Assembly (NCBI GenBank): GCA_014896455.1
Contig: JADBKJ010000029.1
Coordinates: 1-34,362, forward strand
Source of the DNA: Thermoanaerobacter sp.
GTDB lineage: Bacteria > Bacillota > Thermoanaerobacteria > Thermoanaerobacterales > Thermoanaerobacteraceae
Length of the DNA: 34,362 nt
Direction: 5' to 3'
Of the stretch, positions 1,835 to 27,711 are shown one piece after another. The translations under genes and the position numbers were made by a program. Each line of letters opens with the position of its first letter. Positions within the stretch are counted from its first letter, which is position 1. The notes beneath the pieces were generated by a model. The model was not told where the DNA came from, ran no database searches, and worked only from the letters and a program-made list of their open reading frames with translations.

Positions 1835-3388
1835 ATGAAAATAGAATTAAGTGATATTTTGAAGAAAATGGGGGTTATTGTAGAAATTTCGGATGATGAA
1901 ATGGTTGCAACCTTGAAAAAAACCCTTTCTTCTTCTTGGGATAATGTAGATATTCATGAATTTTTAAATATACTGGAAAGCGATCTTCGTAAGAATGGAA
2001 TTATAGTAAGTGTAGATAAAAGTGCATTAATTAGTGTATATGCCCAAAATAAAAAAGAAGCAGTAATAGCAAGAGGAACACCATATAAAAGTGGCAGGGA
2101 TGGCTATCTAGAATTTGTTGTAAAAATCGACAAACCGAGAATTCTTTATACCGAAACATTCTCTGAAGCAGACATATTTAAGATGGCAAGTATGCCTTTT
2201 GCAAAAAAAGGCGATGTAATCGCGAAACTACATAAACCCATAAAAGGTGAAAATGGAATTAGCGTAAGAGGTAGAATTATACATGCACCACCTGTAAGAG
2301 ATGTTGAAGTAAAAATTCTCAGCGATTCCATAGTTTTTAAAAAAGATGAAGATAAAATAGTTGCGATAGCTGACATAAGGCCGGTTGTACATAAAAAGGA
2401 CGAAAATGATAAATTTGTATATTTTTTTAATTCTATTCCCATGTTAATTTACGAAGGAAGTATCACAAAGAATTCAAGACCTGTAACATTCGATGGTGAC
2501 ATTATAATAAACGGAAATGTCGAAAAAGGTAATCAAGTAATTGCTTCAGGAAATGTTCAGATACGGGGTTCAGTTTACGAATCAGTAGTTCAGGGAGGGC
2601 AAAATATTATTATCCATGGCGGAATTGTTGATAGCCAGTTACATGCCGGTTTTTTACCAGGAAACATTTTTGATAAAATAGAACTTCACGCCGTAAATCT
2701 TATTGTTGAGAAATTATCGGCAATTTTTGTCCATATTAAAGAACTACCAACGGTTATGAATAATTCCAGACATTTAAGCGAGAAAATTAAATTAATCGAA
2801 ACTTTAAAAGAAGAGTTAAAAACATCATCAAGAGAAATAAGTATGATACGCAGTTCAAATGTGCTTCAAAATCCTCTGGGACATTTAAAAAGTCTTGTTA
2901 AAACACTCGACAACATTTTGGATTACGATATTATTGGTCTTATAAAACATTTGAATTCATTGAAAGAAATTTATGAAAAAATCCTCTTCATATCAAGGAT
3001 TTTAGCCGAGGAACATGAAAACAAGGGACATATACTTGCAAAATGGGTTCATGACAGCAAAATTTATGCTATGAAGGACGTAATTATAACCTCAGAAGCA
3101 GGTTGTTATAATACAAAAATTTCTACAAATGGTTCAGTTTCCATTAATGGTAAGGTTAAAATGAGCACGATCGAATTTGACAAAAATATCTTTGTAAAAG
3201 AAGCAGGATCGCACGGCGTCGCCAGTCACGTATTATTAAAAGGAAGTAAAAATTCAATAGTAAAAATTCTTTACGGCTATGAAGGAGTCGAATTATACTT
3301 TGATAAAATAGGCTACAAATTAAGAAATGGCGAAAAAATAAAATTATATTTAGACAAAGATGAAAAAATCGTTGAAGACATTATTTAA
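1835..3388 (+). CDS. DUF342 / FapA-like protein
   Basis: About 517 residues. The start is the ATG at 1835, because GGGGGTG at 1823-1829 is the only good ribosome site; an in-frame ATG at 1787 lacks one. The N-terminal part holds the DUF342 signature, with FAKKGDVIAK followed by KGENGISVRGR, and then the beta-helix-like series GDIIINGNVEKG, GNVQIRGSV and GGQNIIIHGGIV with regular glycines. A helical, probably coiled-coil insert (about residues 300-400) precedes a last beta-rich part. FapA-type proteins are soluble, and in Vibrio one has been linked to polar flagellar assembly and signalling. The role here is unknown. The next gene is a c-di-GMP enzyme on the same strand 42 bp away, so the two are probably co-transcribed and may act in surface or motility control. 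Confidence 0.8.
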   Translation: MKIELSDILKKMGVIVEISDDEMVATLKKTLSSSWDNVDIHEFLNILESDLRKNGIIVSVDKSALISVYAQNKKEAVIARGTPYKSGRDGYLEFVVKIDKPRILYTETFSEADIFKMASMPFAKKGDVIAKLHKPIKGENGISVRGRIIHAPPVRDVEVKILSDSIVFKKDEDKIVAIADIRPVVHKKDENDKFVYFFNSIPMLIYEGSITKNSRPVTFDGDIIINGNVEKGNQVIASGNVQIRGSVYESVVQGGQNIIIHGGIVDSQLHAGFLPGNIFDKIELHAVNLIVEKLSAIFVHIKELPTVMNNSRHLSEKIKLIETLKEELKTSSREISMIRSSNVLQNPLGHLKSLVKTLDNILDYDIIGLIKHLNSLKEIYEKILFISRILAEEHENKGHILAKWVHDSKIYAMKDVIITSEAGCYNTKISTNGSVSINGKVKMSTIEFDKNIFVKEAGSHGVASHVLLKGSKNSIVKILYGYEGVELYFDKIGYKLRNGEKIKLYLDKDEKIVEDII

Positions 3389-3439
3389 TTTGTTGCAGTT
3401 GGCTTTTAACCGTCGACCGAATATGAAAGGATGATTTAT

Positions 3440-4714
3440 GTGTTGAAGAAAAAGGAACTTAGAGATAAGAAGTATTATTATGATTATTTGACCAACCTTC
3501 CAAACAGATATTTTTTATATGAGTATTATAGCTCTAGCAATTCCCAATTTGTTGTTGCACTCCTTGATTTTGATAATTTCACATACATTAATGATTCCTA
3601 TGGACATCATTTTGGGGATAAAGTGTTAGTTGAAATAAGCAAGATGCTGCTTGAAATAGTAAAAGAAAAGGGAAAGATTTTCAGGTTTGGAGGTGATGAG
3701 TTCGTTGTCCTTTTCCACTGTAATTTGGATGAAGCAATAAGCGTTATAGAAAATGTTATAGAAACGTTTAATTATGTTTTCAAAGTTGAGGAAAAAGATA
3801 TCTTAACAACAGTGAGCGCAGGCATTTATGTATCAAAAGTAAGCGAACATATGGATGATATTATAAGAAAAGCAGATGCTGCAATGTTTGAAGCTAAAAA
3901 GTTGGGTGAATCAAAATATGTCATTTTTGACAAAACTATAGAGGACAAAATAATCGAAAAAGCTGAAATGATGCTAGATATCAAGAAAGCGATGCTAAAC
4001 AACGAGTTTTACCTTTTATTTCAACCTATTTATGATTTGAGAGTGAATAGGATAAGGGAAGTTGAAGCCCTTGCAAGGTGGAAGAACGACAAATATGGCG
4101 ACATCTCTCCTTCACGATTCGTTCCATTGCTTGAAGAGACTGGTCTTATTAAAGAATTTGGTATTTTTATTATTGAAAATGTTTTTAAACAAATAAAAGA
4201 TTGGCGGAATAAGGGCATAGAGCTTAAGGTTAACATCAATGTTTCTCCCCTTCAGCTTAGGGAGGATGAGTTTTTCTTTAAATTTGATGAGCTTATTAGT
4301 AAATACAATATACCATCAAATCTCATCGGCATAGAATTTACTGAAACTCAAATATTAGACATTAAAGAGCAAAAGGTAAACAAAATAGACGAATTTTTAA
4401 AAAGGGGAATAAAGATTTCGCTAGATGATTTTGGTGTTGGATATTCTTCCTTAATAAACATGATAGAGTTTCCTATAAGCATTATTAAGATGGACAAAAG
4501 CCTTATTGACAGGATTGACGAAAACAAAGTAAAAACATTAATTAAGGGAATTTTGTATATCTCAAAGGAAATGAATTATGAAGTCGTAGCAGAAGGTGTA
4601 GAAAAAGGAGAACAGCTTAGTATGCTAAAGGAATGGGGTTGTGACAAAATACAAGGCTATTATATATCGAGGCCTAAAACTTCAGAGGAAATAGAAATGA
4701 TTTTCAGAACGTGA
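3440..4714 (+). CDS. GGDEF-EAL protein (c-di-GMP synthase and/or phosphodiesterase)
   Basis: Both catalytic domains look intact. Numbered from the upstream ATG at 3431, the GGDEF domain (about 18-170) has RFGGDEF at 85-91. The EAL domain (about 185-425) has VEALARW at 211-217, the N-V-S-P-L-Q segment, EFTE, DDFGVGYSSL, IKMDKS, AEGVE and QGYYISRP, which are the usual metal and substrate residues. No inhibitory RxxD site is visible before GGDEF. No sensor or membrane domain precedes GGDEF, which is unusual, so input may come from a partner such as the neighbouring DUF342 protein. The ATG at 3431 abuts its AAAGG ribosome site, so GTG at 3440 (or TTG at 3443), about 9 bases after AGG, is a better start. 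Which activity dominates cannot be read from sequence. Confidence 0.88.
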   Translation: MLKKKELRDKKYYYDYLTNLPNRYFLYEYYSSSNSQFVVALLDFDNFTYINDSYGHHFGDKVLVEISKMLLEIVKEKGKIFRFGGDEFVVLFHCNLDEAISVIENVIETFNYVFKVEEKDILTTVSAGIYVSKVSEHMDDIIRKADAAMFEAKKLGESKYVIFDKTIEDKIIEKAEMMLDIKKAMLNNEFYLLFQPIYDLRVNRIREVEALARWKNDKYGDISPSRFVPLLEETGLIKEFGIFIIENVFKQIKDWRNKGIELKVNINVSPLQLREDEFFFKFDELISKYNIPSNLIGIEFTETQILDIKEQKVNKIDEFLKRGIKISLDDFGVGYSSLINMIEFPISIIKMDKSLIDRIDENKVKTLIKGILYISKEMNYEVVAEGVEKGEQLSMLKEWGCDKIQGYYISRPKTSEEIEMIFRT

Positions 4715-4872
4715 ACATAAAAGGAAGTAAAAACATACTGAAAAATGTAAAAATAACTTTACTTTTTATTCTAATAGGACTAGTTACCATTTTTTTTGGA
4801 ATAATTTCGTTGAAGCGGGTAACCCTCACAATCCTTCTATATCCTTTTAATTCACTTTTAACTGTCGTCTAG
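4711..4872 (+). CDS. 53-residue membrane ORF, probably a truncated gene
   Basis: A GTG at 4711 overlaps the TGA of the GGDEF-EAL gene (GTGA), the usual form of translational coupling. The product has a basic start (KGSKNILKNVK), one clear membrane helix (ITLLFILIGLVTIFFGII) and a short tail ending at TAG 4870-4872. It overlaps by 15 bp the 3' end of the convergent HAD gene. The N-terminus resembles the start of a larger sensor or membrane protein. I infer that the rest was lost when the neighbouring minus-strand cluster arrived. A genuine small membrane protein is the alternative. Confidence 0.45.
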   Translation: MNIKGSKNILKNVKITLLFILIGLVTIFFGIISLKRVTLTILLYPFNSLLTVV

Positions 4873-5658
4873 AAAAATTTTTTCTAGCATACGTGCGACA
4901 CCTAATTTATCATTTGAGCTGGTAATAAAATCTGCTTTTTCCTTTAGTAAAGGAATTGCATTTTCAACTGCAATTCCTACTCCTACAGATTCAAACATCT
5001 CAACGTCATTTACTCCATCACCAAATGCCATAACTTGATCCATTGAAATACCTAAATAGTTACAAAGTAATTCTACAGCCACAGCTTTAGTTATGTTTTT
5101 AGAATTAACTTCAAAATTATCATTTTCTATAATAAAGGTAAATTCATCTTTCAAAGGTTTAATCATTTCTAATGCGCTCTTAATACGTTCGGGAGTATCA
5201 TATACCACAATTTTTAAAGGATCTTTATTTAGATGAGAAAGTTTACCTTTTCCCACTTCCACAAAAGGAACCTTATGTATTTTTGAGAAAAGATAAGTCT
5301 CTTCTATAGCCTCTTGAACATATAAACAATCATCCGCATAAAATTTTATATAATAATTATTTTCTTCTAAAGTTTTAATAATAGGCTTAATTTTTTCTCT
5401 TGAGATTGGAAACGTGTAAAGTGGAGGTTGCCCTATACTTGATATATAAGCTCCATTATAGCAAATCACAGGAATTTTAATTCCCAACAATTTTGCAATT
5501 GTACAGGTAGAACGAAATGTCCTACCTGTAGCTAATGTAACAAGGATTCCTTTCTTTTGCACTTTCTTTATTGTTGATATTGTCTTTGGAGGAAGATTAC
5601 CATTTGAATCTAATAAAGTCCCGTCAATATCAACTACTACAAGGCGAATATCCCGCAT
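4858..5658 (-). CDS. Cof-type HAD-family phosphatase
   Basis: 266 residues, usual for class IIB (Cof-like) HAD hydrolases. Motif I is D10-I-D12-G-T, motif II has T44 in TLATGRT, motif III is likely K191, and motif IV is GDGVND at 213-218. These cytosolic enzymes dephosphorylate sugar phosphates and related metabolites. It is the last gene of the ten-gene operon, and its ATG overlaps the stop of the KDGP aldolase gene (TAATG). In this place it may dephosphorylate an intermediate or clear a toxic sugar-acid phosphate. The substrate cannot be named. No convincing terminator is seen after it; its end overlaps the small plus-strand ORF. Confidence 0.9.
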   Translation of the reverse strand: MRDIRLVVVDIDGTLLDSNGNLPPKTISTIKKVQKKGILVTLATGRTFRSTCTIAKLLGIKIPVICYNGAYISSIGQPPLYTFPISREKIKPIIKTLEENNYYIKFYADDCLYVQEAIEETYLFSKIHKVPFVEVGKGKLSHLNKDPLKIVVYDTPERIKSALEMIKPLKDEFTFIIENDNFEVNSKNITKAVAVELLCNYLGISMDQVMAFGDGVNDVEMFESVGVGIAVENAIPLLKEKADFITSSNDKLGVARMLEKIFLDDS

Positions 5659-6377
5659 TATTCAACAACTCTCTTTACAATTGTCGCTAATTCTTCCACA
5701 TCTTCTATTCTTGTTAAACCTGTTGTTTTATCAATAATTGAAGTGTAAACGTGAGGGATCACAGTTTGAATACCATTTTTTAAGCAAACTTCTAGAACAG
5801 TAGGTAAAGATTTTTTGTCAATTCCACCTGTTGGTTCAAAAATAGTTATACCGTGGTTAATACACGCTTTAACCATTTCCTCTACTTCTTCAAGCCGTTT
5901 GTTTCCTTCTATTGGGAAAAACTTTACTGAAGGAACACCTATCTCCGCCAACATCGCTGCTGCTAAATCACATGACACCATTTCTAAGTATTTTTCACTA
6001 GTTGGTCCTGTTGAAATAAATACTTTTCCTGGTATACCAGAAGGTCTAATTAGAGCATTTACTATGGTATGTTCACTTTTAACTGCTTTTAATGCTCCTA
6101 AAGTATACCCTGCTGCCGTGAAAACTTGATTTACGTGTGCGGGCTTAGTGGCAATAGCAACCTCTAGTACCTTTTGCCATTGTAGTGGATCCCCTGCACC
6201 AAGTCCAATAGAAACAGGTATTCCTGCATTTTGAAATTCAAAAACCTTTTTAATCGCTTCTTCTGTAGAATCGAACTCTTTTGTCAAAATCCCAATAAAT
6301 ACTTTTCCTTCTGTTACCTCTACAATTTCTTTAGCATTCTCTAAATTCTTTGCCAATACATTTAATCTAACTTCCAT
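5658..6377 (-). CDS. dgaF: KDGP aldolase family protein (DgaF-like)
   Basis: 239 residues. The segment around K152 (SVKFFPIEG) matches the Schiff-base lysine region of KDPG-type class I aldolases, and FEPTGGID near 180-187 suits phosphate binding. DgaF of Salmonella cleaves 2-keto-3-deoxygluconate 6-phosphate to pyruvate and glyceraldehyde 3-phosphate at the end of D-glucosaminate catabolism. The ATG has a GAGGTG site and lies 10 bp after the DgaE-like gene, so the ammonia lyase and aldolase probably work in series. In Salmonella the substrate enters by a mannose-type PTS; that PTS is absent here, so the exact sugar acid is open. Confidence 0.87.
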   Translation of the reverse strand: MEVRLNVLAKNLENAKEIVEVTEGKVFIGILTKEFDSTEEAIKKVFEFQNAGIPVSIGLGAGDPLQWQKVLEVAIATKPAHVNQVFTAAGYTLGALKAVKSEHTIVNALIRPSGIPGKVFISTGPTSEKYLEMVSCDLAAAMLAEIGVPSVKFFPIEGNKRLEEVEEMVKACINHGITIFEPTGGIDKKSLPTVLEVCLKNGIQTVIPHVYTSIIDKTTGLTRIEDVEELATIVKRVVE

Positions 6378-6387
6378 TTTTCACACC

Positions 6388-7491
6388 TCATTGTACTCTT
6401 AAAATTTCTTTTATTCGATTAACAATTATTTTTTCTTGCCCTGGAAGCAAAGGACGAGGATCTATACTTATAATGCCTAAATTTGCATAATGATTCCTGG
6501 TAAAAATTGCAGGTTCCCCTCTTTCTAATTGTTGTATAATTTCATGCGTTGAAATGTTTAATCTCTCTTCGTCAAATTTTAATTGAGCACGATAAATTTT
6601 TCTTCCAGCTTCATCCTGCACAACCGAAGCAGTTATTCCATCGATATTTTGAAACTGATCAACTATCCATTGAACTTGCTGTAATTGTTTTTCTATATCT
6701 TCTACTTTATTTTTATAAATCTCTAATGCAGCAATTAAACCCATAATTTGTTCTTTTCCAACTTTCATTGCCCTTCCAATACCCTTGTACTGCAAACGAC
6801 AAGCTTCAATTAGTTCTTTTTTCCCACAAATAAAACCTGAAGTAGGACCTTCTATAGCCTTACCGCCACTATATATTACAAGCTCCGCCCCCATTTGAAT
6901 ATATTTCTGTATATCTTCTTCTGCAGCTGCATCTACAATTATTGGAATATTATTTTCTTTGCTAATTTCAATTATTTCAGGAAGAGATAACATACCTTTT
7001 TGAACAGCATGATGTGATTTTACATAGAAAATTGCAACAGTTTTTTCTGAAATTGCATCTATAATATGACTTTTTTCAACATAGTTTGTTTGGCCTACTT
7101 CAACTATTTTACCTCCACCTAATCTAATCATTTGTAGTATAGAAGCTCCAAAATTAATCGAATGTCCTTTTTGGATGATAACCTCATTTCTCAAACCTTC
7201 ACTATACGGTAACTGCTCAATAAGAGTTAAATTCTTCCCTGCAATTAAAGCAGCTACAGAAATTGCAATGCCAGCAGCAGCACCTACTGTCGGGCATGCA
7301 TCTTCCGCCGTCGTAATTTCAGCAATTATTCTACCTGCCTTTAACATTAATTCTTGTACATCAACGTAATCTTGCGCAGCTTCAAACATTGCTTGTGCTA
7401 CCTTCGTATCTACAGCACCGCCTCCCAAAGCAGTCATTTTACCGCTTGCATTTATAATCTTTTTTAAACCGTATTTTTGATAAATACTCAT
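6388..7491 (-). CDS. dgaE: DgaE-like PLP-dependent ammonia lyase (SelA-related fold)
   Basis: The ATG at 7506 lies inside the ribosome site (ATGGAGGT), so the ATG at 7491 (MSIYQKYG) is the start, giving 367 residues. The fold is that of SelA-like fold-type I PLP enzymes. The aspartate for the pyridine nitrogen is in PIIVDAAAEED, and the PLP lysine is in IYSGGKAIEGPTSG (K211 from this start). D-glucosaminate-6-phosphate ammonia lyase releases ammonia to give 2-keto-3-deoxygluconate 6-phosphate, the substrate of the next gene's product. The gene follows DUF4310 after an intercistronic hairpin, which may uncouple enzyme and transporter levels. Substrate identity is inferred from the family and the aldolase neighbour. 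Confidence 0.87.
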   Translation of the reverse strand: MSIYQKYGLKKIINASGKMTALGGGAVDTKVAQAMFEAAQDYVDVQELMLKAGRIIAEITTAEDACPTVGAAAGIAISVAALIAGKNLTLIEQLPYSEGLRNEVIIQKGHSINFGASILQMIRLGGGKIVEVGQTNYVEKSHIIDAISEKTVAIFYVKSHHAVQKGMLSLPEIIEISKENNIPIIVDAAAEEDIQKYIQMGAELVIYSGGKAIEGPTSGFICGKKELIEACRLQYKGIGRAMKVGKEQIMGLIAALEIYKNKVEDIEKQLQQVQWIVDQFQNIDGITASVVQDEAGRKIYRAQLKFDEERLNISTHEIIQQLERGEPAIFTRNHYANLGIISIDPRPLLPGQEKIIVNRIKEILRVQ

Positions 7492-7510
7492 AACCACAAC
7501 CTCCATAAAA

Positions 7511-7532
7511 GCAGGCAGATTAACCTGCCTGC
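7511..7532 (-). promoter_or_regulatory. intercistronic stem-loop before the DgaE-like gene
   Basis: GCAGGCAG and CTGCCTGC form a perfect 8-bp stem with a 6-base loop. Read on the minus strand it is followed by only four T residues and then the ATGGAGG ribosome site. It looks like a partial terminator or a processing/stability element inside the operon, separating the transporter-like genes from the enzymes. Confidence 0.6.
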
Positions 7533-7538
7533 AAATTA

Positions 7539-8195
7539 TTATTGAATTGGAAAGAAAACCCCCATTAACATCGCTCCAAGTATAGCTCCCCCTGCAATTG
7601 GCTTTTTGTACGCATAAAAAACTGCAGCTCCAATTATAGCCCCTAAACCTACTGGAATAGAAGCCATGACAGCAGAAATTACAATCAAAGGCCCTAAATA
7701 TCGTCCAGCAGCATTACCTGCTCCCATCATAATATCTGCTCCGAATGTAGAGTCTATCTTATCAACTGTAAACTTTCGAATAGAAATTATTACAACTCCA
7801 ATTATAGCTCCAAGAATAGCACCCGTTAGTAAGGCTAAAGGAAACGATTCAAGCGGGGCGGTAAAGCCTGCTCCAAGCATCAACGCTGGTATCCCAATTC
7901 CTACTCCTGTTTGTAAAGCACCACCAATATCTAAAATTCCTACCAATGGACCTTCTATAACACGTGCGAATAAAAAAGCTCCTCCAAAGGCAGCTGCGGC
8001 GCCAAATCCGCCTCCTTTAAGTCCAGCTTCTAGTAAAGCAACAACAGCCAAGTCATTGAATGCCCCAACATGATATGTGTAATATAAATGAGTTCCACCA
8101 AAAATACCAGAAGCAAGAGCCATCACAAATACAATAAATCCCCATTCTGAATACCAGAAACCAAGCTTTTTATCTTCTATTTTTATATCTTCCAT
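7539..8195 (-). CDS. DUF4310 family membrane protein
   Basis: 218 residues, mostly hydrophobic and rich in glycine and alanine, with about six or seven membrane segments and repeated small-residue patterns (GGGFGAAAAFGGAF, GAILGAIIGVVII, GAIIGAAVFYAY). I recognise it as DUF4310 by its pattern and its DUF4311/4312 neighbours. It starts two bases after the DUF4311 stop. Paired with DUF4311 it probably forms a membrane channel or transporter. No transport activity is established for the family, so this is inference. Confidence 0.8.
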   Translation of the reverse strand: MEDIKIEDKKLGFWYSEWGFIVFVMALASGIFGGTHLYYTYHVGAFNDLAVVALLEAGLKGGGFGAAAAFGGAFLFARVIEGPLVGILDIGGALQTGVGIGIPALMLGAGFTAPLESFPLALLTGAILGAIIGVVIISIRKFTVDKIDSTFGADIMMGAGNAAGRYLGPLIVISAVMASIPVGLGAIIGAAVFYAYKKPIAGGAILGAMLMGVFFPIQ

Positions 8196-8197
8196 TT

Positions 8198-8980
8198 TTA
8201 TTTCACCACCATTCCAAAGAATTTATGAAGATTAATTAACCATTGGGGTATTCCAATATTCATGCTTTTCAGTAATGCTACATCGAAACCCCGGAAAAAT
8301 CCACTTAATACAAATAAAATAATAACAGTAGTTACTAAAGTTTTTGTAATTCTATTCCAACCAGAATCATCTACACCCTTTCCTATCAAAATTCCCAAAA
8401 CAATACCTGGTACAGCATTTCCCATTATCAAATGTGCTAATCCACCTAAAATTGTTCCCCAAATACCTGTCCGTTTTCCTGCATCAAGTGCTGCCAACCA
8501 GAATATTATGGGCATAACAGGATTGATTAGCCAATTGGCGGCTGGTACCAAAACTTTTGTCGCAACATTTTGTAACGATTGTGGAACTGCCGCCGCTGTT
8601 GAATTTAAAAGAGGTATTAATATCGCTCCTACGATAGCACCAGCTACTGCCATTTTTTTAGGATCGTGTAAGGTTTCTTTCACGTTTCTATTTTTTGTTA
8701 AAAGTAATGCCGCAGCCCAGTTTGGAATAATTCTATGTTCAACATCTTGTGTTAATGCCCCAGCTCCTATAACCGTTGCCCATGAGTTAAATAAAAATCC
8801 CAAGCCAAAAGAAAAATGCGAAATTGGATCACCTTGACAAGCATTTAATTCTCCTAATGTTCGAAATGCTCCCATCCCCTGAACTGTAGGAGCATGAAAC
8901 ATTCTTGCAGCACCTGCTCCAACTCCAAATCCTACCAAAGCCCCAATAATTATTGATTTTAAGATTATCACGATAGTCAT
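8198..8980 (-). CDS. DUF4311 family membrane protein
   Basis: 260 residues from the ATG at 8980, which has GGGAG 8 bases upstream; the in-frame GTG at 8989 is too close to that site. There are about seven hydrophobic segments rich in small residues, starting with a glycine-rich helix (GALVGFGVGAGAARMFHAP). The charged loop GALTQDVEHRIIPNW and the stretch NACQGDPISHFSFG may line a substrate path. It sits between DUF4312 and DUF4310 in a tight operon. The pair probably form one membrane complex, possibly a PTS EIIC-like or YhfT-like transporter split in two. That comparison is inference. Confidence 0.8.
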   Translation of the reverse strand: MTIVIILKSIIIGALVGFGVGAGAARMFHAPTVQGMGAFRTLGELNACQGDPISHFSFGLGFLFNSWATVIGAGALTQDVEHRIIPNWAAALLLTKNRNVKETLHDPKKMAVAGAIVGAILIPLLNSTAAAVPQSLQNVATKVLVPAANWLINPVMPIIFWLAALDAGKRTGIWGTILGGLAHLIMGNAVPGIVLGILIGKGVDDSGWNRITKTLVTTVIILFVLSGFFRGFDVALLKSMNIGIPQWLINLHKFFGMVVK

Positions 8981-9008
8981 CCCAAACACTCCCTTCCATT
9001 CCTTTACT

Positions 9009-9344
9009 CTAAATTTTTAAAAATTGTTTTAGTAACGTAGGCGTATCATCTATTTCTTCAAATTTTATTTGTGAAATTTCTATCACTCCTACCCTCACTG
9101 TTATCATAGCTTTAACCTTATACAAATTACGCTTTCGCGGGAAAAACAGCCCTAAAAATCTTTCAGTAAATATGATCTTCTTTGCCTCTACAACCTCAAT
9201 ATCTTTTGGTTCAATTCTAATTATTAAATCTTTAATCTCATATGAAAGTTTATTCCTTATTTGTGAAAATATCCTATTAAATACTTCTTCAATAGTTTCA
9301 CCTTTTTCTTCAAATTTTAATGTACGATCAAACTCTTTATACAT
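9009..9344 (-). CDS. DUF4312 family small protein
   Basis: 111 residues, soluble, mixed alpha/beta, with a basic patch FFPRKR near residue 67 and no signal peptide or membrane helix. Its ATG overlaps the stop of the SFCGS gene by 8 bp (ATGTATAA), and the AGAGAGAAT before it is a weak ribosome site, so it is translationally coupled. Its presence beside DUF4310 and DUF4311 is typical of this cluster. Function is unknown; a cytosolic subunit of the putative transporter is the simplest guess. Confidence 0.75.
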   Translation of the reverse strand: MYKEFDRTLKFEEKGETIEEVFNRIFSQIRNKLSYEIKDLIIRIEPKDIEVVEAKKIIFTERFLGLFFPRKRNLYKVKAMITVRVGVIEISQIKFEEIDDTPTLLKQFLKI

Positions 9345-9717
9345 CTTTATTCTCTCTCTTAATTAATTTTATATATTCTTCTGTTAATCTCCTGCCAAGT
9401 TCCTCAATGTCCATAAAGCCGAAACCAAGGACTCTTTTACCTTCTCTTAACGCAGTAATACCTGCATCAATAGAACGAAGTCCATACTCTGCTGGATATC
9501 CATATTTTGTTTGAGCAGTTAAAGCACCAGCCCCTCCACTTCCGCAAAAAGCAATTCCAAAATCAGCATTTTCCTTATTCATTACATCACCAACTTTCAT
9601 ATCTGCGCCTACACCTGGAATCACAATCGCAATTCCACCTGCTTCTTCAACACCTTTTGCCACTTTTTGTCCTTTCCCGAGTCGATCACCAATTACCACC
9701 TTCACTTTATCATGCAT
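9337..9717 (-). CDS. SFCGS family glycine-rich protein
   Basis: 126 residues with the family's signature cysteine motif FCGSGGAGALTAQ (C58), then YGYPAEYG and a GKRVLGFGFMDIEEL tail. The start has an AGGAGG site inside the end of the PRD gene. The order of parts (a beta-alpha N-terminus, Cys followed by a glycine loop, then GK..GFG) recalls PTS EIIB domains, whose phosphorylated Cys precedes a Gly/Thr loop, and DUF2620 proteins such as E. coli YhfU. An energy-coupling or phosphate-accepting subunit for DUF4310/4311 is a testable inference, not established knowledge. Confidence 0.8.
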   Translation of the reverse strand: MHDKVKVVIGDRLGKGQKVAKGVEEAGGIAIVIPGVGADMKVGDVMNKENADFGIAFCGSGGAGALTAQTKYGYPAEYGLRSIDAGITALREGKRVLGFGFMDIEELGRRLTEEYIKLIKRENKDV

Positions 9718-10108
9718 TATTTTTTCCTCCTACCCATTTAATTTTAGACGCTTCAAAATGAACCGCTAATAAAAATATTTCTGTTTCGTCTAATTCTTTC
9801 TTAAACCTTTGCACATATTTTTGCAAAACTTCAATACTCATTTTTTTTACCTCTGGTGAAATTTCATTCCATAACCCTGGTTCAACAGGTGGTAATTTTT
9901 CATTCGCTTCTAATCTCTTAATAAAAGCCAATAAATGATATCCTATTAACACCAAACGATTAAACGAAAAAGAAAATTTACCATCTTTTTCATTTAATTT
10001 AACTAATCTTAATAACTCAAATAGTTCCTCTCTCTCTTTTTCTGTTATCTTTTCTTTCTTAGAAATCTCTTCTATTACTTCTTTTAATATTTCCTTAACT
10101 TCATCCAT
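9710..10108 (-). CDS. stand-alone PRD domain protein
   Basis: 132 residues holding a single PTS-regulation domain without a DNA- or RNA-binding part. The two histidines that HPr or EIIB normally phosphorylate are present: H58 in GYHLLAFIKRL and H117 in LLAVHFEAS. It overlaps the upstream amidohydrolase stop (ATGGATGA) and the downstream SFCGS start, so synthesis is coupled. The family matches the EF_0829-type PRD protein of this cluster. A PRD next to membrane subunits, rather than in a transcription factor, suggests direct control of the transporter by phosphorylation, which is inference. Confidence 0.82.
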   Translation of the reverse strand: MDEVKEILKEVIEEISKKEKITEKEREELFELLRLVKLNEKDGKFSFSFNRLVLIGYHLLAFIKRLEANEKLPPVEPGLWNEISPEVKKMSIEVLQKYVQRFKKELDETEIFLLAVHFEASKIKWVGGKNNA

Positions 10109-11237
10109 TGCACTTCAAAACCTTTCCAGATTTGATTGTATATAATGGTAACAAGAACTTCTCTGCAACTATTTCTTCACCTTCAGAATCAACAAGCTTA
10201 ATAGGAGATTGGTTCCATTTTAAAATGGAAATATCTGCTATGTTTCCTTCTTTAATACTGCCAATTTCATGTTCCATACGAAGTACCTTAGCTGGCATAC
10301 TTGTAGTAGCTTTTATTACTTCTTCTAAAGAATATCCTAAGGCAATGAATTTAGTCATCGTAGTAACTAAACTATAAACAGGCCCAGTTATATTATCAAG
10401 ATAAATATCTGTGCTAATAGTATGAGGAACAATTCCTAAATCTCTAGCACGTTTCATTACCTTAAAGCTAAAACTCGAAGTACCATGCCCTACATCAAAT
10501 AGAACCCCTCTTTTTAAAGCATTCTCTGCTTCCAATATTAACTTTCCATCCTCATCTAATATCCCTCCTTTCTTTCCGTGGAAAGCGTGAGTAACTACAT
10601 CGCCTGCTTCTAATAAACTTAAAATATCATTAAGATCTGGTGGTGGATTGCCAATATGGACCATAAGAGGAAGCTTAACTTTTTGAGCAAATTTTTTAGC
10701 AATTTCAAGTGGTTTGATTCCATTGTTTTTTACAACTGAAGAACTCATCCTAACTTTTATCCCACGAATTACTTGACCATGCTCTTTAATTACTTCTTCT
10801 AGTTTTTCTAATTCTATGTTTTTTAGATCAGCTAATTCTGAAAGCCCTTCACATAACCCAGGACTAGCAACATTAATCCATAGTAAAACACGAGTAATAT
10901 TTTTTTTAACTACTTCATCAATAAAAAAGTTAATACAACTAACTCCTGTACTTCCGGCATCTACTACAGTTGTAACTCCTTTATTAACTCCAACATGATC
11001 CGCAGAAATTCCCAATACGGTTTTAATTGGAAATACATGTACATGAAGGTCAATTAATCCTGGTACTACTATGCAATCGGAAACATCTAACACATTCTCT
11101 GTGGAATATTCCGAAAAAGTATTAGGCTGGTAAATACCTAAAATTTTCCCGTTATCTATGGCTATATCAAACTTGCCTTTCATTTTATTACCAGGATCTA
11201 TTACATAACCGTTTTTAACAAGTAAATCAATCTTCAT
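10101..11237 (-). CDS. amidohydrolase/deacetylase family metallohydrolase (EF_0837 type)
   Basis: 378 residues, dihydroorotase-like TIM barrel. Metal residues are visible: HVH in LIDLHVHVFP, a candidate carboxylated lysine in RGIKVRMS, His in PLMVHIGNP, His in VVTHAFHG, and the late Asp in HTISTDIYLD. The C-terminal strand region IGSIKEGNIADISIL is typical of the superfamily. It probably removes an N-acyl group or opens a cyclic amide in the cytosol before the DgaE/DgaF-like steps. The start has GAGGAG and follows the regulator gene by 16 bp. Of the enzymes in the operon it is the closest to the promoter. Confidence 0.87.
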   Translation of the reverse strand: MKIDLLVKNGYVIDPGNKMKGKFDIAIDNGKILGIYQPNTFSEYSTENVLDVSDCIVVPGLIDLHVHVFPIKTVLGISADHVGVNKGVTTVVDAGSTGVSCINFFIDEVVKKNITRVLLWINVASPGLCEGLSELADLKNIELEKLEEVIKEHGQVIRGIKVRMSSSVVKNNGIKPLEIAKKFAQKVKLPLMVHIGNPPPDLNDILSLLEAGDVVTHAFHGKKGGILDEDGKLILEAENALKRGVLFDVGHGTSSFSFKVMKRARDLGIVPHTISTDIYLDNITGPVYSLVTTMTKFIALGYSLEEVIKATTSMPAKVLRMEHEIGSIKEGNIADISILKWNQSPIKLVDSEGEEIVAEKFLLPLYTIKSGKVLKCNG

Positions 11238-11253
11238 TTACTATTTTCTCCTC

Positions 11254-13167
11254 TCATTTAAAATATTGCAAAATAGCCATTATTTCGCTTTCTGGAATAT
11301 TAATTTCATTTTCTTTTAATATTTTCTCTAGTCGTTCACGCATTTCAGAAGAATAATTAAATTTATAATTGTAATCCGTATATTCAAAATCATAAAATGA
11401 ATTAAAAGCAATTCTACCAGCTAAAAGTAAAATATGAAGTTTTAAACCTTCTGCTCGTTCTTCACTAAGATTATCCTTAAATTCTTGAATAATTTTTTGG
11501 CTTAATACATACCCTTTAAAAATAATATTTTGTACAAATTGTTCAGCAATCACTGGTTCAAAATAATTTTCTCCCTCAACCGAGGGACAAAACAACTCTG
11601 TTGAAGAATTTTTTTGTAATTTATTAATTATTTTATGAATCCGTAGTATATCATCTTCTGTAGGTATATTATGAACTTTTATAAAAGGAATGGTTATATC
11701 TTCTATCGGAACTACGCTAATAATCAAGTCTGGCTTTTTCAATTCTATCTGTCTTTTTAAAGTAAATATTGAACTTGTTCCAATGATTTTTAATTCAGGA
11801 ATTTCATTTTCAAGCATTGTTTTTAGTAATTGAGCTGTCCCTCTGCCTGTATTGCACACAATTAATGCCTTAAATAAATAATTTTTTTTCTGTCTCTCAT
11901 AAGCAGCTTGAAAATGTAATACAATATAGGCTAAATCAGCATCCGTGAAATAAATATCCTCCTCCTTAAATACCTCATAAACACATTCTTTAATCAAGTG
12001 AAACATAGTAGAAAAAGAACTAATAACTGCACCTAGTATAGGATTAGGGTCTATAATGCCAAATCTAAATTTCACAACTTTATCTTTTAGATGAACCAAT
12101 AGCGCATTTAATAATTGATCATCTTTTTCGAAGTTAATTTTTGTTTTTATTGTCATCCTTTTAATTAACTCTATTGTTTTTTCATATACATCAATTCCTC
12201 TATACTCGGAATCTTTTATATCCTCCAATAGAGGCTGTACTATTTCTATCGTAGGAAGACTTATATATATGAGCTCAGATTCGGTAAAAATAAAATTCAA
12301 AAAAGGAGGCCCATTTAATACTTCTTTAAAAATTTGATATAATTTTTGCATTTTTAATTGTTGAATATTAATTGTTGTCATAAAATCTAAGTTTTCACTT
12401 TTCTTCCTTTTTAAACGTTGAATTGTAATTATAAGACGAATAAATATATTAATGATTATTCTATCGGAAAGCATTATTTCCAACTCATTTTCTATTCTGG
12501 AAATAATCAAACGTATCTTAGAAAAAACATATTCCAGTTCTTGTTTAGATAAAAAAGGCACGCTCTGGATTAATAAAAATTCTCTTCCTTTTAAACTTTT
12601 TTCCTTAATTATATTCATAATGATTTTATTCATTTCTTTTTCTTCCATAGTACTCTGAACAAGATATTCTAGAGCAAGCCTCCGATAAAATTCAGAACCT
12701 CTTATTCTTATCCCTTGCCGAGTCCTTTCTATCACAAGATGCCTTTGTTTTAAATCTTTTTCTATTATGTTTAAATCTCTCACAATTGTATTTCGACTAA
12801 CTTCAAACTTTTCAGCTAAATCGCTAATTTTGTAAAATGAATCATTCACTAACAATTCTAAAGTAAGCCGTCTAATTCTCTCTGGACGCTCAAAAAAACC
12901 ATATAATCCCTCATTTAAACTTAAATCTCTTTTTAACTCATTACTAATTCGAGTATTTTTATCTCTTTCATCTATCCATATTCCTACATTGGGTTTTGAA
13001 TAAAGATTAATATCATACTTTTTTAACCAATCTCTGAGTAAATCAAGGTCATATTTTACTGTACGTTCACTTACTTGAAACTCACGTGCAATATCTTTAA
13101 TCCGCAGGGGTTTTGATGATTCTAATAACATACTAAAAATTTTATTTACACGGCCAGGAAGTAACAA
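11254..13167 (-). CDS. BglG/MtlR-type PRD-containing transcriptional regulator
   Basis: 637 residues from TTG 13167, which has AGGAGGG upstream. Domains in order: a first winged HTH (about 7-51), a second HTH (about 100-140), PRD1 (about 190-310), PRD2 (about 330-425), an EIIB-like domain (about 432-505) with the phosphorylatable C438 in VCNTGRGTAQ, and a C-terminal segment (about 535-637). PRD2 has both histidines (H359 in LLVHL, H418 in IVLHFQ). PRD1 lacks them (N240 in NIFIRLIITIQRL). The C-terminus has no EIIA signature; its LKLHILLLAGRIAF (H578) and PESEIMAILQYF resemble a third, degenerate PRD. It leads the operon and probably activates it according to PTS phosphorylation. Confidence 0.88.
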   Translation of the reverse strand: MLLPGRVNKIFSMLLESSKPLRIKDIAREFQVSERTVKYDLDLLRDWLKKYDINLYSKPNVGIWIDERDKNTRISNELKRDLSLNEGLYGFFERPERIRRLTLELLVNDSFYKISDLAEKFEVSRNTIVRDLNIIEKDLKQRHLVIERTRQGIRIRGSEFYRRLALEYLVQSTMEEKEMNKIIMNIIKEKSLKGREFLLIQSVPFLSKQELEYVFSKIRLIISRIENELEIMLSDRIIINIFIRLIITIQRLKRKKSENLDFMTTINIQQLKMQKLYQIFKEVLNGPPFLNFIFTESELIYISLPTIEIVQPLLEDIKDSEYRGIDVYEKTIELIKRMTIKTKINFEKDDQLLNALLVHLKDKVVKFRFGIIDPNPILGAVISSFSTMFHLIKECVYEVFKEEDIYFTDADLAYIVLHFQAAYERQKKNYLFKALIVCNTGRGTAQLLKTMLENEIPELKIIGTSSIFTLKRQIELKKPDLIISVVPIEDITIPFIKVHNIPTEDDILRIHKIINKLQKNSSTELFCPSVEGENYFEPVIAEQFVQNIIFKGYVLSQKIIQEFKDNLSEERAEGLKLHILLLAGRIAFNSFYDFEYTDYNYKFNYSSEMRERLEKILKENEINIPESEIMAILQYFK

Positions 13168-13201
13168 ACTATTTTCCCTCCTAACCTTTTGTTTGTAATA
13201 A

Positions 13202-13230
13202 ATTATACTTAAACTTTAATTAGTTAACAA
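13202..13230 (-). promoter_or_regulatory. promoter of the ten-gene operon
   Basis: On the minus strand TTGTTA and TATAAT are separated by 17 bases, a good housekeeping-sigma promoter about 35 bp before the regulator's TTG start. The region between it and the terminator at 13354 holds no other feature that I can support. Confidence 0.65.
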
Positions 13231-13353
13231 GAATCATTTCTTTCACCAACAATAGTGCAATTTTTGAAACTCGTTATATTCTATTTAAATCGTCCTTAAT
13301 GCACTTTATACTCTTACCTTATCCAACAGTTAACACTCATGCCGGGCGCACAC

Positions 13354-13387
13354 AAAAAAGGCAAGCATCTTCTAATGCCTGCCTTTT
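13354..13387 (-). terminator. terminator of the peptide-scavenging operon
   Basis: On the minus strand, AAAAGGCAGGCAT pairs with ATGCTTGCCTTTTTT around a short loop (one mismatch), 13 bases after the dipeptidase stop codon, and ends in a T run. Confidence 0.88.
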
Positions 13388-13399
13388 AGCAAAACTTTA

Positions 13400-14602
13400 C
13401 TAACTCCAAACTTGCTTTAAAACTCTCAGTGCATTTCCTCCGATTACTTTTTCAATTTCTTCATCTGAATATCCATGTTTTACCAACCATCTTAAGATAT
13501 TCCACGAAGCTTCGGTAGGATTCTCTAAGCCTTTTACGTATGGAACTTCCTCATATTCAAGGATTTTATTGCTGGTTTCTTTAGTTGATAAGTTTGATGA
13601 GAATACATGGTGCAAACCTACATGATCACCATAAAGTGAATCTATACCAAACGACACATGATCAATTCCTACGAGATTTGCTATATATTCAAAATGTTCC
13701 ATTACGGAATCTATATCGTGAGTCATTCTGGTTTTTGTCATAGTAGTGTGGGGAGCCGCTTCAACGGCTATAATCCCACCTTTTTCAGCAATCGCCTTTA
13801 TTAAATCATCGTGAAATAGCCTTTTGCTTTCCCATAATGCTCTAGCTCCCACATGACTTGCTATTATTGGTTTTTCGGAATACATTGCAACATCATACGC
13901 AGTCTTAGAACCACAGTGAGAAACATCGATCAACATTCCAACTTTATTCATACGCCTTACAGCTTCTTTGCCAAATTTAGTTAGTCCACCATCGTTATCT
14001 TCCCTCAACCCGCTGCCTAAAGCATTTGATTCAGAATAAGTGATACCCATCGCCCGTACGCCTAATCCATAAAGGATGTCTATGCGGTCCAACTCATTTT
14101 CTATAGGCGCAGCCCCTTCAATACAAGCAACCCAGGCGATTTTCCCCTCTTCGTGGGCTTTATAAATATCTTCTACTCTCTTGCAATGGATTAGAAAATC
14201 CTGATGAGCAATGTCGCATAGCCTCATACCCAAGTCATGAATCACATCTTGCCATTTCCACCCTGCCTTAGAAGATATCATATTCGTACCATCCATCATA
14301 TTATCGAAAACGCAATCGTAATACGACAAGGCCAGTGCCTGGTAAGCGCAAAATTCCCTACCGGCTCTGTTATACTCTATCGTTTGTTCTATTTTTTGGG
14401 GAAAAAGTACCGGATGTTCATGCAACGCAATAAATATCTTTTCTTTTGCTAAACGTATAACCCTTTCTTCTTGAGTCTCATCTAGAGGAATTAAATACTC
14501 TCCAGCCCAATTCCACGGTGCAAACTCAAATTCTTGATAATCCACCCCGGGTTCTAAATAGGAATATGCTTTATAGCCTTTATAAGCCGTTTTAATACCC
14601 AT
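13400..14602 (-). CDS. M19 family (membrane/renal-type) dipeptidase
   Basis: 400 residues with no signal peptide, so probably cytosolic. M19 enzymes use two zinc ions to hydrolyse dipeptides, including those with a C-terminal D-residue. Expected metal residues are found at H61/H63 (ALHEHPVL), E162 (ACIEGAAP), H229 (DVSHCGSKT) and H250 (IASHVGARAL), with a later Asp in VSFGIDSLYG. The first pair is normally His-x-Asp; here it is His-Glu-His. The start has AGGAGAT. It is the last gene of an operon carrying a dipeptide ABC transporter and a D-aminoacylase, which points to breakdown of imported D-amino-acid-containing peptides. Confidence 0.88.
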   Translation of the reverse strand: MGIKTAYKGYKAYSYLEPGVDYQEFEFAPWNWAGEYLIPLDETQEERVIRLAKEKIFIALHEHPVLFPQKIEQTIEYNRAGREFCAYQALALSYYDCVFDNMMDGTNMISSKAGWKWQDVIHDLGMRLCDIAHQDFLIHCKRVEDIYKAHEEGKIAWVACIEGAAPIENELDRIDILYGLGVRAMGITYSESNALGSGLREDNDGGLTKFGKEAVRRMNKVGMLIDVSHCGSKTAYDVAMYSEKPIIASHVGARALWESKRLFHDDLIKAIAEKGGIIAVEAAPHTTMTKTRMTHDIDSVMEHFEYIANLVGIDHVSFGIDSLYGDHVGLHHVFSSNLSTKETSNKILEYEEVPYVKGLENPTEASWNILRWLVKHGYSDEEIEKVIGGNALRVLKQVWS

Positions 14603-14628
14603 TTAAATCATCTCCTTTAAAAGTTAAG

Positions 14629-16278: not shown

Positions 16279-16306
16279 CCTTCTCCTCTCCTAATTTTTT
16301 CATGGC

Positions 16307-17914: not shown

Positions 17915-17932
17915 AAATATCCCCTCCACTAA

Positions 17933-18778: not shown

Positions 18779-18783
18779 CGAAA

Positions 18784-19746: not shown

Positions 19747-19757
19747 TTTTTCTCCCC

Positions 19758-20717: not shown

Positions 20718-20730
20718 AACTACAGCCTCC

Positions 20731-24864: not shown

Positions 24865-24891
24865 CACAATCCCTCCGTCTCTTTTAAAAAA

Positions 24892-27661: not shown

Positions 27662-27680
27662 TTGCACCTCCTGTAATCTT

Positions 27681-27711
27681 AAGAATGAGAGGGATTACCC
27701 CTCTCATTCTT
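27681..27711 (-). promoter_or_regulatory. stem-loop between binding-protein and ATPase genes
   Basis: AAGAATGAGAGGG and CCTCTCATTCTT form a 12- to 13-bp stem with a very short loop, starting at the stop of the binding-protein gene. On the minus strand no T run follows, so it is less a terminator than an mRNA 3' stabiliser. Such hairpins often allow more binding protein than permease to be made. Confidence 0.65.

What the first reader, a model, noticed from the sequence alone, without database searches (positions are those of the whole stretch)
4858..13167. Undescribed ten-gene cluster: putative PTS-controlled transporter plus amino-sugar-acid pathway
Regulator, amidohydrolase, PRD protein, SFCGS protein, DUF4312, DUF4311, DUF4310, DgaE-like, DgaF-like and HAD lie in one tight operon with overlapping or near-abutting genes. 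The first nine correspond, as I recall, to a set of families named only after loci EF_0829-EF_0839/AHA_3910-3915, with no experimental role. The enzymes suggest: remove an acyl group (amidohydrolase), eliminate ammonia (DgaE-like), split a 2-keto-3-deoxy acid phosphate (DgaF-like). No known transporter is present, so DUF4310/4311 with DUF4312 and SFCGS would have to bring the substrate in, probably as a phosphate. The gene content also recalls the uncharacterised E. coli yhf cluster (PRD protein, YhfU, YhfT, PLP enzyme, Php hydrolase).
Basis: partly seen in the sequence, partly recalled or inferred. Interest (0 to 1): 0.9.

Follow-up and report, generated by a model that had tools for sequence, protein, structure and literature searches.

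The report
Putative new phosphotransferase-type sugar-acid importer
A ten-gene bacterial operon appears to bring in an acetylated amino-sugar acid with an importer made of proteins of unknown function, driven by the cell's phosphate-relay sugar uptake system, and then to break the acid down to pyruvate and ammonia; if right, it is an unrecognised kind of sugar importer.

Summary
The ten genes are present as described, minus strand, 4858-13167. The core SFCGS-DUF4312-DUF4311-DUF4310 is contiguous in 90 of 94 other distinct clusters, with a stand-alone PRD gene first in 85. Deacetylase, DgaE-like and DgaF-like enzymes usually accompany it; four enzyme-free modules checked had DgaF elsewhere in the genome (4 of 4). 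New evidence ties the module to the PTS: HPr genes lie in or against 22 of 94 clusters and Enzyme I in 11, including an HPr-EI fusion on Bartonella plasmids, with active-site motifs intact. DgaE-DgaF units outside the DUF operon carry a sugar kinase (11 of 13) or a mannose-type PTS (2 of 13); of 86 DUF runs with DgaE one carries that PfkB kinase, while DgaE keeps phosphate-site arginines. Best reading: a PTS-type phosphorylating importer of an N-acyl-aminosugar acid, perhaps N-acetylglucosaminate, built from families with no detected EII homology. Phosphoryl route and substrate are inferred. Counter-evidence: no fold match, kinases in all six split genomes, PRD fused to the regulator once, mixed LPMO association.

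The parts
11254..13167 (-). Regulator, 637 aa: HTH_11, Mga HTH, PRD repeats, weak PTS EIIB-like domain (below cut-off); conserved H359, H418, H578
   Evidence: conserved in 73, 70 and 73 of 74 aligned regulators (74 of 83 passed the length filter); the Bartonella counterpart has a PTS_EIIA_2 domain
10101..11237 (-). Amidohydrolase/deacetylase (EF0837-like), proposed to remove the N-acyl group
   Evidence: NF006689 449.7 bits vs 371; solved relatives 8wzy, 2ics, 2ogj
9710..10108 (-). Stand-alone single PRD protein, candidate phosphocarrier
   Evidence: H58, R65, E110, H117 invariant in 77 of 77 aligned, of 79 found
9337..9717 (-). SFCGS glycine-rich protein, candidate EIIB-like Cys carrier or sugar-phosphate-binding protein
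   Evidence: TIGR03577 197.9 bits vs 141.1; R12, G14, K15, G16, D39, C58, R81 in 78 of 78 aligned, of 80 found; related to YhfU
9009..9344 (-). DUF4312 soluble protein; possibly accessory (not found in L187 and L188)
   Evidence: PF14189 82.8 bits vs 27; no Kyte-Doolittle segment; no tblastn hit in L187/L188
8198..8989 (-). DUF4311 membrane protein, proposed permease subunit
   Evidence: PF14188 E 3.6e-121; predicted all-helical, pLDDT 78, pTM 0.60; no PDB fold match
7539..8195 (-). DUF4310 membrane protein, proposed permease subunit
   Evidence: PF14187 E 3.5e-98; predicted all-helical, pLDDT 70, pTM 0.58; no PDB fold match
7511..7532 (-). Hairpin with T-run between the importer genes and the enzyme genes; possible partial terminator or processing site
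   Evidence: 9-pair stem found by consensus scan only; 4 such sites found in the region, 3.5 expected from shuffles
6388..7506 (-). DgaE-like PLP ammonia-lyase; likely true start about 7491
   Evidence: TIGR01437 493.6 bits vs 385.3; aligned to Salmonella-type DGL 7lc0 with both loop His and the three phosphate-site Arg kept
5658..6377 (-). DgaF-like KDGP aldolase
   Evidence: PF07071 269.4 bits vs 26.7; TIGR03581 291.1 vs 222.4; solved relatives 3mux and others
4858..5658 (-). Cof-type HAD phosphatase; also found after DgaF in other clostridial clusters
   Evidence: TIGR00099 199.9 bits vs 137; HAD hits after DgaF in L014, L015, L017, L018, L019, L020

Best explanation
The operon imports and degrades an N-acylated 2-amino-2-deoxy sugar acid, most likely N-acetyl-D-glucosaminate. 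DUF4311 and DUF4310 form the membrane channel. Phosphate from PEP passes through Enzyme I and HPr to the DUF module, through the soluble proteins PRD and/or SFCGS, so that the acid arrives in the cell already phosphorylated, as in a PTS. The amidohydrolase removes the acyl group, the DgaE-like enzyme eliminates ammonia (and water) to give 2-keto-3-deoxy-6-phosphogluconate, and the DgaF-like aldolase splits this into pyruvate and glyceraldehyde-3-phosphate. The PRD/EIIB-type regulator senses the same phosphate flow and switches the operon on. SHOWN (comparatively): gene content and order, linkage to HPr/EI, linkage to the enzymes, conserved active-site residues, near absence of a linked kinase. 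INFERRED: transport itself, phosphorylation of the substrate, the route HPr to PRD(His) to SFCGS(Cys) to substrate, and the identity of the substrate.
For: (1) HPr is in the gene run of 20 of 94 distinct clusters by a mechanical rule, plus abutting in L056 and L095 (22 of 94), and EI in 11 of 94. HPr copies keep HxRP(A/S) and EI copies GGxTSHxA (Pfam check of three HPr and one EI). On two near-identical Bartonella plasmids the cluster ends in one HPr-EI fusion gene, with no classical EII among the genes listed beside it. HPr/EI hits were 0 of 12 in loci with DgaF but no DUF module and 0 of 11 in yhf loci. (2) In three split cases (L030, L041, L047) the HPr gene is with the DUF module, not the enzymes; the other two distinct ones (L081, L087) have no HPr. 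(3) Outside the DUF operon, 13 DgaE-DgaF units (L041 and L042 near-identical) carry a PfkB kinase (10), an FGGY kinase with an SSS symporter (1), or mannose-type EIIABCD without either kinase (2; Pfam). DUF runs with DgaE: this PfkB kinase in 1 of 86, the anomalous L094. The window's genome (90% complete) gives no match to that kinase. (4) Window DgaE keeps R306, R337, R351, aligned with Arg301/332/346 placed at the phosphate in a docked model of Salmonella DGL (PMC9529869 passages); kept in 89 of 89 DUF-type sequences, window included, duplicates not removed. (5) The order soluble-soluble-membrane-membrane matches EIIA-B-C-D of the dga-type operons L153 and L172. (6) The amidohydrolase is in 87 of 94 DUF runs but in neither dga-type unit nor the SSS unit, as expected if DUF imports an acylated acid. 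(7) EI is present in 47 of 47 cluster genomes searched, the window's included (48 handles given, L022 not held).
Against: No sequence or fold similarity of DUF4310/4311 to any EIIC/EIID or other transporter, though both models are only moderate (pTM 0.58-0.60). The six split genomes (L030, L041, L042, L047, L081, L087) all have the PfkB kinase beside a set of their enzymes, so some DUF-module genomes do own one. The three Arg residues are also invariant in kinase-type (11 of 11) and SSS-type (1 of 1) DgaE, so they do not separate the groups. PRD domains are normally regulatory, and in L081 the PRD is fused to the regulator; HPr/EI could serve the regulator alone. EI is common in these lineages and no background was measured, so point (7) is weak. 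Only the PfkB family was searched in all 94 clusters; FGGY was searched in part, and one FGGY kinase lies in the run of L062, beside an L-fucose isomerase. A classical EIIC stands next to the DUF genes in L024, L078 and L094. Most clusters (72 of 94) have no HPr nearby, the window among those without. LPMO association is mixed.
Confidence: 0.58

Rival explanations
1. PTS-regulated but not phosphorylating: DUF4310/4311 is a secondary or otherwise driven importer. The PRD protein, HPr and EI only signal to the regulator or gate the importer, and an unlinked kinase makes the phosphate.
For: PRD domains are regulatory in known systems (established knowledge); PRD fused to the regulator in L081; kinases present in all six split genomes; PfkB relatives somewhere in 17 of 20 cluster genomes searched.
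Against: No match to the kinase in the window's genome, G400 or G407; apart from one of 39% in G434, the matches that cover most of the query are 33% identity or less. This kinase is almost never in the DUF run (1 of 86). Dedicated EI as well as HPr in 11 of 94 clusters is much for signalling alone (inference).
Confidence: 0.22
2. The DUF module is not an importer but a membrane-bound enzyme or sensor complex (for instance an isomerase-like SFCGS docked on the membrane) that controls the regulator or modifies the acid; uptake is by another system.
For: SFCGS resembles RpiB/LacAB isomerases weakly in the same region in two searches (Pfam E 0.021; PDB profile E 1.0 and 1.6, behind a nitrogenase chain at 0.053). 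In some split genomes the enzymes sit with a classical PTS EIIC (L127, L171), and an EIIC stands beside the DUF genes in L024, L078 and L094.
Against: The recurrent genes of the 94 runs include no other importer (unlabelled ORFs that vary between loci were not all identified). Two multi-helix membrane proteins plus two soluble ones stand where dga-type operons have EIIABCD. Dedicated HPr/EI genes.
Confidence: 0.1
3. Same machine, different substrate: not N-acetylglucosaminate but another N-acyl-2-amino-3-hydroxy acid or an O-acyl hydroxy acid.
For: DgaE-like and DgaF-like proteins miss the glucosaminate-6-P equivalog cut-offs (438.8 vs 600; 288.6 vs 300). LPMO genes are absent from the window's genome and the two same-genus genomes searched, and not enriched among DgaF carriers in the Enterobacterales sample (5 of 15 vs 32 of 133, p 0.53).
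Against: Loop His, PLP Lys and phosphate-site residues match Salmonella DGL. LPMO is enriched among DUF4311 carriers in the order of a Paenibacillus genome (7 of 12 vs 44 of 167, p 0.04, uncorrected for relatedness).
Confidence: 0.1

Closest known systems
Salmonella dga system (DgaABCD mannose-type PTS, DgaE, DgaF; PMC9529869, passages read)
   Same: DgaE- and DgaF-like enzymes, no PfkB kinase, two soluble plus two membrane importer genes ahead of the enzymes; a dga-type operon (L153) lies in the same genome as a DUF cluster (L152)
   Different: EIIABCD replaced by PRD-SFCGS-DUF4312-DUF4311-DUF4310; a deacetylase is added
E. coli yhf cluster (YhfZ, YhfY PRD, YhfX, YhfW, Php, YhfU, YhfT, YhfS)
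   Same: A Cys-loop protein homologous to SFCGS (YhfU; Cys in 12 of 12) next to a membrane protein, with a PRD gene in the cluster (directly before YhfU in 9 of 11 loci, not in E. coli or L179), PLP enzymes and a hydrolase
   Different: YhfT shows no detectable relation to DUF4310/4311; different enzymes; HPr/EI in 0 of 11 loci
Ong pathway for oxidised chitin in Pseudoalteromonas (PMC9537276, passages read)
   Same: Deacetylation and deamination of N-acetylglucosaminate towards KDG-6-P
   Different: SSS symporter, OngB of D-aminoacylase type, kinase acting on KDG after deamination, no PTS
Classical PTS EII permeases (Glc-Fru-Lac, Asc-Gat, Man types; classes recalled)
   Same: Linked to HPr and EI in a part of the clusters; PRD/EIIB-type regulator; apparently delivers a phosphorylated substrate
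   Different: No EIIA, EIIB, EIIC or EIID homologue detected in the module

Membership tests
PTS permease (EII) | Depends on Enzyme I and HPr | tested here: inconclusive
   Genetic linkage only: HPr in 22 of 94 clusters, EI in 11 of 94; EI in 47 of 47 cluster genomes. Dependence itself untested.
PTS permease (EII) | Contains homologous EIIA, EIIB and EIIC(D) domains | tested here: not met
   No such hit for PRD, SFCGS, DUF4312, DUF4311 or DUF4310; none for the SFCGS, DUF4311 and DUF4310 profiles in the PDB; no fold match for the two membrane proteins. Only the regulator has EIIA/EIIB-like domains.
PTS permease (EII) | Conserved phosphorylatable His and Cys/His in soluble subunits | tested here: met
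   PRD H58 and H117 in 77 of 77; SFCGS C58 in 78 of 78. That they carry phosphate is not shown.
PTS permease (EII) | PEP-dependent phosphorylation of the substrate during uptake | not testable with these tools
   Needs biochemistry.
[quoted passage not shown]
   438.8 vs 600; belongs to the wider subfamily TIGR01437 (493.6 vs 385.3).
[quoted passage not shown]
   Aligned residues K216, H165, H166, R306, R337, R351; His and Arg roles from passages of PMC9529869; K216 as the PLP lysine by alignment position. R226, near the carboxylate, is Lys in the window.
KDGP aldolase (DgaF) | Pfam PF07071 and TIGR03581 cut-offs | tested here: met
   269.4 vs 26.7; 291.1 vs 222.4; NF047796 equivalog narrowly missed, 288.6 vs 300.
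EF_0837 deacetylase | TIGR03583 hypoth_equivalog cut-off | tested here: not met
   379.2 vs 432.15; NF006689 amidohydrolase/deacetylase is met, 449.7 vs 371.
yhf-type cluster | YhfT homologue | tested here: not met
   hhalign probability 0.2 for DUF4311 and for DUF4310.
yhf-type cluster | YhfU (DUF2620) homologue with a PRD gene in the cluster | tested here: met
   SFCGS vs YhfU probability 85.4, E 5.8e-6 for a single comparison; PRD directly before SFCGS in 85 of 94 clusters.

The most novel reading that the evidence does not exclude
An evolutionarily separate type of PTS permease with no known EII domain: HPr phosphorylates the stand-alone PRD protein (EIIA role), which passes phosphate to Cys58 of an RpiB-like SFCGS protein (EIIB role), and this phosphorylates the acid held by DUF4311/DUF4310 (EIIC/D role). 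The yhf cluster (PRD YhfY, Cys protein YhfU, membrane YhfT) would be a second family of the same type.
Probability: 0.38. Interest if true: 0.92.

Novelty: new variant of a known kind. Interest (0 to 1): 0.8.

Why it matters
In known PTS importers the phosphate acceptors belong to a handful of EII lineages (recalled). A PTS importer built from unrelated proteins would add a lineage, give a function to four unnamed families (at least 490 stretches of the one-genome-per-species collection encode DUF4311 relatives), and give PRD proteins a possible catalytic role. It would also supply a candidate route for acetylated sugar acids in Gram-positive and enteric bacteria. The Aeromonas chitin study PMC11653859 (passages read) found only distant or no OngB/OngC matches there and left open which deacetylase and deaminase would act; this cluster, named after AHA_3910-3917 in NCBIfam and present as DUF4311 in an Aeromonas caviae record, is a candidate. 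The claim is directly testable with few proteins.

Tried and rejected
DUF4310/4311 as YhfT relatives: rejected for lack of signal (hhalign probability 0.2, no better than three ABC permeases used as single-sequence controls). A weak DUF4311 ring in E. coli (below cut-off) and in 397-aa ORFs of two genomes (E about 8e-4) was not followed to an identity. DUF4311 against DUF4310: nothing. Structures: both membrane models gave no PDB match. SFCGS was not folded because both prediction jobs went to the membrane proteins. LPMO-derived substrate: tested, mixed (Enterobacterales sample, DgaF carriers 5 of 15 vs 32 of 133, p 0.53; order of a Paenibacillus genome, DUF4311 carriers 7 of 12 vs 44 of 167, p 0.04; 21 of 48 cluster genomes overall, 0 of 3 in the window's genus). 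Positions separating kinase-type from DUF-type enzymes: four conservative ones only. E. coli complete genomes: no DNA match to a Klebsiella DUF4311-DUF4310 query. Rfam on 3000-16500: nothing above the gathering scores. Two readings of mine were dropped on rechecking: DUF4312 seemed missing from L091 and L162 but its DNA is there; and in L056 the PRD is not fused to the amidohydrolase, the two lie in different frames.

Literature, all in the held PMC library: DUF4310 gave 0 papers; DUF4311/DUF4312/SFCGS/EF0830/AHA3911/EF0837 gave 9, unrelated by their listing; glucosaminate/DgaE/DgaF gave 163, mostly DOI fragments, 20 listed; yhf genes 7, listing only; cog3964 1, listing only; EF0829-EF0839 tags 1, PMC7701990, passages read: it suggests that EF0839 and EF2975 may serve import and processing of amino sugars and add fitness in Tn-seq; DUF2620 and family accessions 1, listing only; a search for PTS novelty wording 0; N-acetylglucosaminate wording 8, listing only; PMC7396535, passages: dgaEF duplicated in E. 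faecalis. No paper naming a function for the DUF module was found in these searches. The Miller 2013 dga paper is not held, so dga facts come from PMC9529869 passages. The Raushel COG3964 work (weak hit N-acetyl-D-serine) is recalled only.

Full report
OBSERVATION. Families were confirmed with NCBIfam and Pfam. SFCGS, DUF4311, DUF4310, DgaE-family and DgaF-like proteins pass their NCBIfam cut-offs. The PRD, DUF4312 and amidohydrolase proteins miss the narrow NCBI 'EF_' cut-offs but pass Pfam or broader models; the DgaE-like and DgaF-like proteins miss the glucosaminate-6-phosphate equivalogs. The window lies in a 2.2-Mb genome, 90.23% complete. The nearest named DUF4311 is from a Thermoanaerobacter sp. 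A7A assembly, 99% identical.

SURVEY. With loci from other searches, 99 loci with DUF4311 were scored, 5 of them duplicates, leaving 94 distinct clusters other than the window. Many are close relatives. All four module genes are in the run of 91 of 94; of the other three, L091 and L162 do have DUF4312 in their DNA and L094 has only a faint trace. SFCGS-4312-4311-4310 is contiguous in 90 of 94 and PRD-first in 85 of 94. In the runs: amidohydrolase 87, DgaE 86, DgaF 80, regulator 80. DUF4312 was not found in L187 and L188, two later loci. Six Clostridia loci also carry a HAD phosphatase after DgaF, as the window does.

DO THE MODULE AND THE ENZYMES BELONG TOGETHER? Enzyme-free modules are in L030, L047, L081 and L087 (L016 is the same record as L087); L041/L042 have the enzymes in a neighbouring operon. 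All four genomes of the enzyme-free modules have DgaF elsewhere. In the phylum sample DUF4311 above cut-off is in 7 of 398 genomes, and all 7 have a DgaF match (one of them, G159, below the family cut-off), against 15 of 396 overall. Four genomes that lack DgaF in the cluster (two Xenorhabdus, Paenactinomyces, Streptomyces) lack it altogether, so another aldolase must serve there.

LINK TO THE PTS. A Bartonella plasmid carries PRD-SFCGS-DUF4312-DUF4311-DUF4310-deacetylase-DgaE-DgaF-regulator, followed by one gene whose product is HPr (residues 9-86) fused to Enzyme I (117-640); a second, near-identical plasmid shows the same. Searching the loci then fetched with this protein gave HPr or EI only at DUF clusters. 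HPr is in the run of 20 of 94 clusters and abuts two more (L056, L095); EI is in 11 of 94. The window has neither in its operon; its EI is elsewhere in the genome. The genes sit upstream of the regulator (Paenibacillus), downstream of DgaF (Brevibacillus, L017, L187, L188), after DgaE (Streptomyces) or after the regulator (Bartonella), which suggests repeated recruitment, though no tree was made. Active-site motifs are intact in those found. In a later order-wide sample, 6 of 12 DUF4311 loci were fetched: five have HPr and EI and L189 has neither; two of the five (L190, L192) are the same records as L027 and L029, so 3 of 4 new ones. Controls: 0 of 12 loci with DgaF but no DUF module (L127-L133, L153, L169-L172) and 0 of 11 yhf loci. 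In three of five distinct split cases (L030, L041, L047) the HPr gene is with the DUF module; L081 and L087 have none. EI is present in 47 of 47 cluster genomes searched, but many of these lineages have EI anyway and no background was measured.

LINK TO PHOSPHORYLATION. DgaE-DgaF units outside the DUF operon were examined in 13 cases (L041 and L042 near-identical); L133, a sub-cut-off DgaF without DgaE, was left out, and L094 is counted with the DUF runs. Ten (L041, L042, L127-L131, L169-L171) have a PfkB kinase; two of these (L127, L171) also have a PTS EIIC and a MupG-like 6-phosphoglycosidase, and L128 an EIIBC, a MupG-like protein and an EIIA. One (L132) has an FGGY kinase and a sodium symporter. 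Two (L153, L172) have mannose-type EIIA, EIIB, EIIC and EIID and neither kinase. By contrast, DUF runs with DgaE have this PfkB kinase in 1 of 86, the Lactococcus locus L094, whose module is reduced to DUF4311-DUF4310. Only this kinase family was searched everywhere; an FGGY kinase lies in the run of L062, beside an L-fucose isomerase, and probably belongs to that pathway. With one PfkB kinase as query, 17 of 20 cluster genomes gave some match; the window's genome, G400 and G407 gave none; the best was 39% identity in G434. The DgaE proteins of DUF clusters keep the three arginines that a docked model of Salmonella DGL places at the phosphate (89 of 89, window included; PMC9529869 passages). 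These residues are equally kept in kinase-type proteins, which fits a phosphorylated substrate everywhere but does not by itself prove it.

HOW IT MOST LIKELY WORKS. Putting these together, the DUF module does the job of EIIABCD for an N-acylated acid. The phosphate path is unknown. The PRD protein has two invariant histidines (77 of 77) and SFCGS an invariant cysteine in a glycine-rich loop plus an invariant R-x-G-K-G motif (78 of 78). SFCGS is related to E. coli YhfU, whose cysteine is also invariant (12 of 12), and weakly to RpiB/LacAB isomerases, which bind sugar phosphates (recalled). This makes EI, HPr, PRD, SFCGS, substrate a reasonable but unproved order. DUF4312 has no hydrophobic segment.

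AGAINST. Neither membrane protein resembles anything solved, but both models are of moderate quality. Six split genomes own a PfkB kinase next to a set of their enzymes. The PRD is fused to the regulator in L081, so a purely regulatory role for PRD remains open. Seventy-two of 94 clusters have no HPr nearby. A PTS EIIC stands beside the DUF genes in L024, L078 and L094. The LPMO test for an oxidised-chitin substrate is mixed.

NOVELTY. The families are catalogued as unknown, and none of the searches named a role for the DUF module. PMC7701990 (passages) had suggested that EF0839 and a paralogue may serve amino-sugar import and breakdown, so the pathway idea has a forerunner; the importer reading and its PTS link I did not find in print. 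The dga and ong pathways are the nearest described routes; the importer resembles the PTS in setting and, by inference, in action, but fails the homology test for EII membership.

Noticed in passing
window 7511-7532 (minus strand): A 9-pair hairpin with a T-run lies between DUF4310 and the DgaE-like gene, splitting the importer part from the enzyme part; DgaE probably starts at about 7491, after a GGAGGTGG.
   Followed up: no
window 13400-21696 (minus strand): Upstream genes look, partly by eye, like a dipeptidase, an oligopeptide ABC importer and an N-acyl-D-amino-acid-deacylase-like amidohydrolase (one search gave only sub-cut-off hits); possibly a D-amino-acid/peptide salvage unit, separate from the finding.
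   Followed up: partly
window 22457-24867 (minus strand): A GlcNAc-kinase-like protein (below cut-off) overlaps an argininosuccinate-lyase-family protein, beside an ABC importer (24892-28801), a NagC/ROK-like regulator (28812-29993) and a protein without NCBIfam hit (30018-30947): another catabolic cluster without an obvious name.
   Followed up: partly
L127 3213-9878, L171 7863-14634, L128 6627-14763: PTS EIIC or EIIBC, MupG-like 6-phosphoglycosidase, deacetylase, DgaE, DgaF and PfkB kinase in one cluster, suggesting import of a disaccharide ending in an N-acetylated amino-sugar acid.
   Followed up: partly
L132 8361-15644: DgaE-DgaF with an FGGY kinase, a sodium symporter and a D-glutamate-cyclase-like protein (GLUCM-like_C) in one run.
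   Followed up: partly
L094 6553-11534: Lactococcus raffinolactis keeps DUF4311-DUF4310 and only a faint DUF4312 trace beside a kinase-type enzyme cluster, perhaps a decaying copy.
   Followed up: partly
L187 and L188: A more distant DUF4311 branch (about 250-270 bits where the others give about 390-400) in two genomes of a Paenibacillus order lacks DUF4312 and has HPr-EI downstream of DgaF.
   Followed up: partly
L062 and L065: Two DgaE-like genes in one cluster (Oceanobacillus, Virgibacillus), one after DUF4310 and one before DgaF.
   Followed up: no
search_dna_similar hits H7-H11 and H14: Six unannotated records labelled as phages of Enterococcus, Listeria, Salmonella and E. coli contain DUF4311; they look like host DNA in phage deposits.
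   Followed up: no
L175 and L176: In Bartonella the cluster is plasmid-borne, next to type VI secretion genes, which suggests transfer of the whole unit including its own HPr-EI.
   Followed up: partly
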